Source: Thermococcus gorgonarius
GTDB taxonomy: Archaea > Methanobacteriota_B > Thermococci > Thermococcales > Thermococcaceae
Reading direction: 5' to 3'
NCBI RefSeq assembly: GCF_002214385.1
Contig: NZ_CP014855.1
Coordinates: 62,001-126,000, forward strand
Length of the DNA stretch: 64,000 bases
Within the stretch, counting starts at the first letter, position 1, and each line of letters begins with the position of its first letter. A program made the translations under genes and the position numbers. The notes under the pieces are model-generated. The model had not been told where the DNA came from and searched no databases. It was given only the letters and a program-made list of their open reading frames with translations. Below are positions 3,747 through 21,593 of this stretch, in pieces.

Positions 3747-4253
3747 TTAGAACTTTGTCCATTCTATTTTGTAGTATACAATGTCCCCGTCGTCGTCAAC
3801 GACGGCCATTATCATCTCCTTCCTGACGCCGTGAGCCACCCTAACTCTGGCCGTTATGTCGTTGGGGGCTATTGTCTTGTTCTCTGGAACGACCCAGACG
3901 AGCCACTGTGAATGCTCGTCCATTCCGCGCCTGTAAACCCTGAAATGGGAGCCGAACTTTAGGCCGGATTTAACCGTGTAGCCCCTGTCCCTCAAATCCT
4001 TGTAGACGAGGTACTTGGCATCGAACAGCTCGTCTTCTTCCCTCCCGAGCTTCATGACTTCCTCTAAGGTTAGCCTCCTTTTCCCGTCCCTTACCTCTAT
4101 CTTGCCCCTCTCCACCAGATAGGCCGCCTCGAGGAGTGAGAGAAAGACCTTCCCGTTGACGAGCTTACCGTAGTGGCGGTTGTTGTGGAGGCCGTCTATT
4201 GCGTTCTTATCGGTCGAGAAAACCCTGTTCCCGCTGAGGTAAAAGACTATCAT
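3747..4253 (-). CDS. endA: tRNA-intron (splicing) endonuclease
   Basis: EndA cuts bulge-helix-bulge motifs in pre-tRNA and pre-rRNA; in this lineage it is a small homodimeric enzyme. The protein is 168 residues from ATG 4253. The C-terminal catalytic half contains YLVYKDLRDRGYTVKSGLKFG, HSQWLVWVV and VRKEMIMAVVD, which supply the Tyr, His and Lys of the catalytic triad. The ATG at 4253 overlaps the rimI stop (TGATG) and follows a strong GGAGGGGGAGC; an in-frame ATG at 4268 is less likely. It is translationally coupled to rimI. Its expected substrates include the pre-rRNA processing stems of the rRNA operon in this window. Confidence 0.95.
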   Translation of the reverse strand: MIVFYLSGNRVFSTDKNAIDGLHNNRHYGKLVNGKVFLSLLEAAYLVERGKIEVRDGKRRLTLEEVMKLGREEDELFDAKYLVYKDLRDRGYTVKSGLKFGSHFRVYRRGMDEHSQWLVWVVPENKTIAPNDITARVRVAHGVRKEMIMAVVDDDGDIVYYKIEWTKF

Positions 4254-4753
4254 CAGCTCCCCCTCCATTCCTCTGCAGGCAAAATCATGTAATAGGCGTC
4301 CTCGCCGTCGGAGTAGTAGCCTATTATCCTCTTCACTTTCCTGAAGCCGAAGCGCTCGTAAAGTCTTATCGCCTTTTCGTTGCTGACCCTGACTTCGAGA
4401 CCGATGTATCGTGCCCCTTTCTTTATCAACCTATCAATGACCTCCGTGAGAAGTGCTGAGCCTATGCCGTTGCCCCTGTACTCCCTGTCCACGGCTATGC
4501 TCATTATGTGGCCCTCAAGGTCCGGCCTCAGGTAGGCCATCACATAGCCGATGACCTTCCCGTTGTATTCCGCAACCAGAAATGTATCCGGATTGTTCTC
4601 AAGGAAGACGAGAAAAAGCCCCCTGGGATAGGCTTCGCTAAAGGATTCACGCTCAATTCTCATTATCTCGGGGATGTCAAAGAGCTTCGCTGGCCTTATC
4701 ACGACCATCGCCAGCGGTATTCTCCTGGTTACTTCTCTGGCCGAAGTACTCAT
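4253..4753 (-). CDS. rimI: GNAT N-acetyltransferase (RimI/Ard1-like)
   Basis: This 166-residue GNAT protein matches the archaeal RimI/Naa10-like family that acetylates protein N-termini. The acetyl-CoA site is REYRGNGIGSALL, preceded by the beta strand HIMSIAVD and followed by ARYIGLEVRVSNEKAIRLYERFGF, the typical motif B. The first ATG is used here because a TATA-like AATCTTTTAAGG (4774-4785) sits about 25 bp upstream, which would make the mRNA essentially leaderless. An internal ATG at 4708, where conserved sequence begins, has an AGGAGAA upstream and is an alternative. It forms a two-gene unit with endA. Confidence 0.88.
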   Translation of the reverse strand: MSTSAREVTRRIPLAMVVIRPAKLFDIPEIMRIERESFSEAYPRGLFLVFLENNPDTFLVAEYNGKVIGYVMAYLRPDLEGHIMSIAVDREYRGNGIGSALLTEVIDRLIKKGARYIGLEVRVSNEKAIRLYERFGFRKVKRIIGYYSDGEDAYYMILPAEEWRGS

Positions 4754-4805
4754 GATCTCATTTTCTCCCGAAACCTTAAAAGATTAAGGGGGCTGATATG
4801 GATGA

Positions 4806-4868
4806 CTTTCGTGATGAGCACTCTCGAACCTGACCGTGGGATGATGACCGGATTCCTGGCTGATTTCT
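4806..4868 (+). ncRNA. Double-guide C/D box sRNA
   Basis: All four boxes are present with ideal spacing: C box GTGATGA at 4811-4817, D' box CTGA at 4830-4833, C' box ATGATGA at 4841-4847, D box CTGA at 4860-4863. Each guide is exactly 12 nt. The D guide (4848-4859) pairs over 10 Watson-Crick pairs with 23S at 20958-20967; the fifth-nucleotide rule puts the 2'-O-methyl group on G20961. The D' guide (4818-4829) pairs over 10 contiguous pairs, one of them G-U, with 23S at 20926-20935, predicting G20928; its two bases next to D' do not pair. Two targets 33 nt apart in one rRNA are typical of double-guide sRNAs. It would work with fibrillarin, Nop5 and L7Ae. Ends are approximate. Confidence 0.92.
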
Positions 4869-4930
4869 CCTTCTTTACTCCACTCGCAGGAGTAAAGTTT
4901 AAAGCCACCAGACTGGAATCCATCCGATAG

Positions 4931-6709
<1,779 letters not shown>

Positions 6710-16506: not shown

Positions 16507-16830
16507 TGAGTGGTTTATTTTCAAAAAACGGGCCCTTTCAGTCATTTTGCAAAAATTTTGTATCACAAGGGTCTGCCACTATTGGGTGGAGCGCCCGAAC
16601 AGGGCGCGAGAAACCCGGGCGCCAAGACGGCGGCGTCGGGGGGAACGGGTGCAAAGCACCCAATATGAACCCCGCCCTCCAGCCCGGGTCACAAAAAGGT
16701 GCGCTCCCGAGGAAACGCCGAAAGGCGGACCCCTCGGGGGTAAGGCAGGCCCGACATCCCGACCAAACCCCGGACGGGAATTTTGGTACTTCCCGCTAAG
16801 GGAAGTCCCACCGGCCGTACTCCTTGCTCA
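16507..16830 (+). promoter_or_regulatory. rRNA operon promoter region and 16S leader
   Basis: There is no gene in these 324 bp. The best TATA-like stretch is AAAATTTTGTAT around 16551-16562, weak as a match, which would start transcription near 16587. The leader then has a hairpin with six-base arms GCGCCC (16591-16596) and GGGCGC (16602-16607) around loop GAACA, a hairpin GGGTGC-AAA-GCACCC at 16647-16661, and the upstream arm of the 16S processing stem (16744-16779). The long frames that cross this region are shadows. Confidence 0.6.
16744..16779 (+). other. 16S processing stem, upstream arm
   Basis: Bases 16744-16760 are the exact reverse complement of 18350-18366, and 16765-16779 pair with 18331-18347 apart from two extra G on the downstream side. 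The bulges between the two helices fit a bulge-helix-bulge, the substrate of the EndA splicing endonuclease, which excises and circularises pre-16S in archaea. Confidence 0.88.

Positions 16831-18320
<1,490 letters not shown>

Positions 18321-18550: not shown

Positions 18551-21593
<3,043 letters not shown>

What the first reader, a model, noticed from the sequence alone, without database searches (positions are those of the whole stretch)
4806..4868. C/D box sRNA upstream of herA guides two neighbouring 23S sites in the same window
All four boxes and two 12-nt guides are visible. The D guide matches 23S 20958-20967 over 10 Watson-Crick pairs (predicted 2'-O-methyl at G20961). The D' guide matches 20926-20935 over 10 pairs with one G-U (predicted G20928). 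Independent matches only 33 nt apart support both. The gene sits in the short gap between divergent rimI and herA and may use or share their promoters.
Basis: partly seen in the sequence, partly recalled or inferred. Interest (0 to 1): 0.72.

Follow-up and report, generated by a model that had tools for sequence, protein, structure and literature searches.

The report
sR5 C/D box methylation guide RNA
This is the gene of a small RNA that tells an archaeon's methylating enzyme which two nearby letters of its ribosomal RNA to modify; it is an ordinary member of a catalogued family (Rfam sR5), and its second guide has changed in step with the ribosomal RNA in related genera.

Summary
Window 4808-4864 (+) matches Rfam RF01304 (sR5, archaeal C/D box sRNA) at 51.8 bits (cut-off 40; E 5.7e-9), and it is the only full C-D'-C'-D pattern in the 64 kb. 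The two guides find exactly the claimed 23S sites as their best matches in 16S+23S: D to G20961, D' to G20928 (E. coli 2309 and 2276). In 20,000 shuffles of both guides only 3 gave two matches this good within 40 nt. In the window's family, 60 of 94 genomes hold an above-cut-off sR5. The D guide and its target are nearly invariant. The D' guide differs between genera and follows changes in its rRNA target hairpin in three genera, the strongest evidence for the weaker D' prediction; it fits with one defect in a fourth genus and fails in the one genome checked of a fifth. sR5 has its own TATA-like box, probably shared with divergent rimI; herA has another. sR5 stays beside rimI where herA is elsewhere, and is absent from several near-complete genomes with unchanged targets. 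Methylation itself is inferred, not shown. A known kind of gene doing a known job; dual guides to close sites are usual in archaea. Low interest.

The parts
4808..4864 (+). sR5 C/D box sRNA (RF01304), full-length model match
4811..4817 (+). box C, GTGATGA
4818..4829 (+). D' guide GCACTCTCGAAC, targets 23S 20926-20935, N+5 = G20928
   Evidence: changes with the target in related genera
4830..4833 (+). box D', CTGA
4834..4840 (+). variable D'-C' linker
   Evidence: differs between genomes
4841..4847 (+). box C', ATGATGA
4848..4859 (+). D guide CCGGATTCCTGG, targets 23S 20958-20967 (G-U at 20957), N+5 = G20961
   Evidence: nearly invariant in the family
4860..4863 (+). box D, CTGA
4775..4782 (.). 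TATA-like box CTTAAAAG, placed for both sR5 (+) and rimI (-); function inferred from position and conservation
4864..4876 (+). pyrimidine/T-rich run directly after box D, possible archaeal terminator (inferred)
4896..4904 (+). TATA-like box of herA, also present in relatives that lack sR5
20924..20935 (+). 23S target of the D' guide, 3' strand of a hairpin (E. coli G2276 = G20928)
20957..20967 (+). 23S target of the D guide, loop and 3' strand of the next hairpin (E. coli position 2309 = G20961)
4253..4753 (-). rimI, divergent neighbour
4940..6709 (+). herA, downstream neighbour (ATG at 4940)

Best explanation
The stretch encodes sR5, a free-standing dual-guide C/D box sRNA. It is transcribed from its own TATA-like box (probably shared back-to-back with rimI) and bound by L7Ae, Nop5 and fibrillarin. 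Its D guide pairs with one hairpin of 23S domain V (H84 in E. coli terms) and directs 2'-O-methylation of G20961. Its D' guide pairs with the 3' strand of a neighbouring hairpin (H81) and directs 2'-O-methylation of G20928. Each guide takes the place of the opposite rRNA hairpin strand, so binding may also hold the two hairpins open during early 23S folding. Shown here: boxes, guides, matches, family, conservation, guide-target co-change, protein partners encoded. Inferred: transcript, RNP assembly, methylation, any chaperone effect.
For: RF01304 match 51.8 bits against a cut-off of 40. Both guides have their best rRNA match at the two neighbouring sites, jointly 3 in 20,000 by shuffling. Above-cut-off sR5 in 60 of 94 family genomes. 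D guide core and its 23S target nearly invariant. D' guides of other genera pair at the same register with their own altered hairpin: g13 GCGCTTCCGATC with TATCGGGGGCGC, g14 GTGCCCTTGATC with TATCAGGGGCGC or TATCGAGGGCGC, while the window's guide has one or two mismatches on those targets. Fibrillarin, Nop5 and two L7Ae-family proteins are encoded in the same genome. The N+5 rule and box consensus are as in PMC4644070.
Against: No RNA or methylation data for this organism. In the Pyrococcus-like genus g12 the D' guide has one internal mismatch or a bulged A, and in the one genome of genus g11 with an above-cut-off sR5 (G062) its D' guide does not fit. In g14 the D' guide has an equally good second match 51 nt downstream. 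Several near-complete genomes lack sR5 though their targets are unchanged, so the modification is dispensable or supplied otherwise.
Confidence: 0.9

Rival explanations
1. sR5 is real but only the D guide directs methylation; the D' guide binds rRNA as a folding aid, or is inactive.
For: The D' match alone is not unusual (10% of shuffles). Positions 1-2 are unpaired and there is a G-U. The Pyrococcus-like D' guide carries a mismatch or bulge. PMC4644070 describes guides that pair without methylating.
Against: The D' guide changes with its target in g13 and g14 and keeps the register that puts a paired nucleotide at N+5.
Confidence: 0.2
2. The element is a kink-turn leader of the herA mRNA through which L7Ae or the C/D proteins regulate herA.
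For: It lies on the same strand 76 nt upstream of the herA ATG. PMC4247193 notes sRNA-like sequences in 5' UTRs that may be regulatory.
Against: herA has its own TATA-like box between the two, also in genomes without sR5. In many genomes sR5 sits beside rimI with no herA downstream, or beside neither. Guides, not only boxes, are conserved.
Confidence: 0.04
3. Chance resemblance in intergenic DNA.
For: Single guide matches of this quality arise in 4-10% of shuffles.
Against: Rfam E-value 5.7e-9, conservation in all six genera of the family, joint match 3 in 20,000.
Confidence: 0.01

Closest known systems
Rfam RF01304 sR5 (archaeal C/D box sRNA family)
   Same: Full-length match above the curated cut-off; same boxes, same D guide.
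   Different: Longer D'-C' linker (7 nt here; a 4-nt insert against the model) and a D' guide fitted to the local rRNA hairpin.
Dual-guide archaeal C/D box sRNAs in general (PMC4644070; PMC7994747)
   Same: Two guides, N+5 rule, two targets close together in one rRNA; PMC7994747 reports that most rRNA-targeting sRNAs in Pyrobaculum are dual guides with sites within 100 nt of each other.
   Different: Nothing of kind.
Other archaeal C/D sRNA families (sR7, sR51, sR33, snoPyro_CD)
   Same: Same box layout, weak sub-threshold matches from the shared boxes.
   Different: Different guides; all below their cut-offs.

Membership tests
C/D box sRNA | Boxes C and C' RUGAUGA, D and D' CUGA in order | tested here: met
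C/D box sRNA | Guides of 10-12 nt between C and D' and between C' and D, complementary to a target with a pair at N+5 | tested here: met
C/D box sRNA | Short transcript of about 60 nt | not testable with these tools
   No RNA data for this organism
C/D box sRNA | Bound by L7Ae, Nop5 and fibrillarin | not testable with these tools
   All partners are encoded in the genome; binding not tested
C/D box sRNA | 2'-O-methylation of the N+5 nucleotide | not testable with these tools
   Needs RiboMeth-seq or low-dNTP primer extension
Rfam RF01304 sR5 | Covariance model score at or above the gathering score of 40 | tested here: met
   51.8 bits, model positions 1-53 of 53
Rfam RF01304 sR5 | Conserved D guide CCGGATTCCTG and a single above-cut-off copy in the genome | tested here: met
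herA 5' leader regulatory element | Linked to herA wherever it occurs | tested here: not met
   Beside rimI without herA, or beside neither, in many genomes

The most novel reading that the evidence does not exclude
Beyond methylating, the sR5 RNP may act as a paired strand-exchange chaperone: its two guides each mimic the 5' strand of one of two neighbouring domain V hairpins, and the D' guide changed as the hairpin changed between genera. Lineages without sR5 would then have to fold this region without it, a natural knock-out set.
Probability: 0.2. Interest if true: 0.35.

Novelty: already known. Interest (0 to 1): 0.2.

Why it matters
It is a housekeeping gene. The useful additions are the cross-genus co-change of the D' guide with its target hairpin, which supports a target that one genome alone could not settle, and a list of near-complete genomes without sR5 but with unchanged target sites, in which the effect of these two methylations could be compared.

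Tried and rejected
A coding role: the plus-strand ORF 4508-4930 overlaps rimI on the other strand; what is conserved is boxes and guides. A herA leader element: rejected because sR5 occurs beside rimI without herA downstream. Other targets: no better match for either guide in 16S or 23S, and none in the tRNA between them. Extra D-guide-like hits in G001, G013, G032 and G096 lack the other boxes and look like one conserved stretch, probably coding. Literature: searches for sR5 in Pyrococcus gave no paper with its targets. The T. kodakarensis table of circular RNAs (PMC9014305) does not list the coordinates of the copy in G011 (contig length 2,088,737 and rRNA coordinates as in that paper, so very probably T. 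kodakarensis KOD1); C/D sRNAs were identified there but only circular ones are printed. RiboMeth-seq data for P. furiosus exist (GSE153501, cited in PMC7758197) but could not be read here. The bacterial sigma-70 scan does not apply to archaea.

Full report
What was checked. The window was scanned against Rfam. It holds an archaeal rRNA operon (16S 16831-18319, 23S 18558-21587), an H/ACA sRNA (Pab19) and, at 4808-4864 on the plus strand, RF01304, sR5, at 51.8 bits against a gathering score of 40, E 5.7e-9, over the whole model. No other full C-D'-C'-D pattern occurs in the 64 kb on either strand.

Targets. The best match of the D guide in 16S+23S is 23S 20957-20967: ten Watson-Crick pairs (20958-20967) and a G-U at guide position 1, with G20961 at N+5. 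The best match of the D' guide is 20926-20935: nine Watson-Crick pairs and one G-U, with G20928 at N+5. By alignment to E. coli K-12 23S these are positions 2309 and 2276, in the domain V hairpins usually called H84 and H81 (helix names from general knowledge). Shuffled guides reach these scores alone in 4% and 10% of trials. Both together within 40 nt were reached in 3 of 20,000. Local folding shows that each guide pairs with the 3' side of a hairpin.

Comparative evidence. Of 94 genomes of the family, 60 have an above-cut-off sR5, and 62 have the C'-D guide core. The D guide core CGGATTCCTG is almost unchanged across all six genera, and so is its target where read. The D' guide is GCACTCTCGAA plus one variable base in nearly all sR5 copies of the window's genus, GCGCTTCCGATC in g13, GTGCCCTTGAT(C/T) in g14 and GCGCCATC(C)GAT(G/A) in most of g12. 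The target hairpin also differs between genera, mostly with matching changes on both strands. In g13 and g14 the own guide pairs without mismatch at positions 3-12 with the own target at the same register, while the window's guide would have one or two mismatches on most of those targets; it fits only the G100/G101 variant, with two G-U. In g12 the guide has one internal mismatch or a bulged A. In the one g11 genome with an above-cut-off sR5 (G062) the D' guide does not match. So the D' target is supported for the window's genus and two others, is doubtful in g12 and fails in G062. These guides share ancestry, so the co-change is qualitative evidence and no probability is attached.

Gene context. 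rimI (minus strand, ATG at 4753) and herA (plus strand, ATG at 4940) are confirmed by curated models. A TATA-like CTTAAAAG at 4775-4782 lies about 22 nt from the rimI start codon and 28 nt from box C of sR5. PMC4247193 gives a median TATA-to-start distance of 23 bp in T. kodakarensis. Relatives keep a similar box there. herA has its own AGTTTAAAG at 4896-4904, kept in relatives whose rimI-herA gap has no sR5 (G007, G019). Of the 43 sR5 loci examined, most have rimI beside sR5, and a smaller set also has herA. In most Pyrococcus-like genomes sR5 is beside neither. sR5 is therefore its own gene and not a herA leader.

Losses. Several genomes rated 99% complete (G007, G022 and others) show no sR5 by model or by D-guide pattern, and in G019 only a weak sub-threshold model match elsewhere. 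Their targets, where read, are unchanged. In G088 the rimI-herA gap holds what looks like a decayed copy with the D' guide remnant CCCTCTCGAACCTGA, and in G016 a copy without a recognisable C box. The modification is thus not universal in the family.

Mechanism. Fibrillarin, Nop5 and two L7Ae-family proteins are encoded in the genome. With the N+5 rule (PMC4644070), the RNP should methylate the ribose of G20961 and G20928. Two close targets per sRNA are usual in archaea (PMC7994747). A folding role has been proposed for such sRNAs (PMC4644070) and fits the hairpin-strand mimicry seen here, but nothing here tests it.

Verdict. The thing is a member of a catalogued family, sR5, with ordinary function, and the methylations are predicted, not shown.

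Noticed in passing
L016, L020, L008 and others, 1-4 nt upstream of the sR5 C box: A perfect palindrome GGGTGGCCACCC occurs in 27 of 94 genomes, nearly always once, and in about 20 of them directly before sR5, near the expected transcription start. It is missing in the window's genome and outside its genus. It could be a 5' leader hairpin or an operator.
   Followed up: partly
G005, G009, G010, G015, G018 and others compared with G000: Within the genus the best HerA match is either 67-94% or only about 47% identical, and in the second group herA is not beside rimI and sR5, as if the herA locus had been replaced or moved.
   Followed up: no
L036 (G088) and L059 (G016), rimI-herA gap: Apparently decaying sR5 copies: one keeps only the D' guide region, the other lacks a recognisable C box.
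   Followed up: partly
window 16591-16693: H/ACA sRNA Pab19 just upstream of the 16S gene (103 bits); PMC4247193 reports a snoRNA at the same kind of place in T. kodakarensis.
   Followed up: no
L262 and L266 (genus g14): The D' guide of g14 has a second, equally good 23S match 51 nt downstream of its main one, GTGCAAGGGCAA.
   Followed up: no
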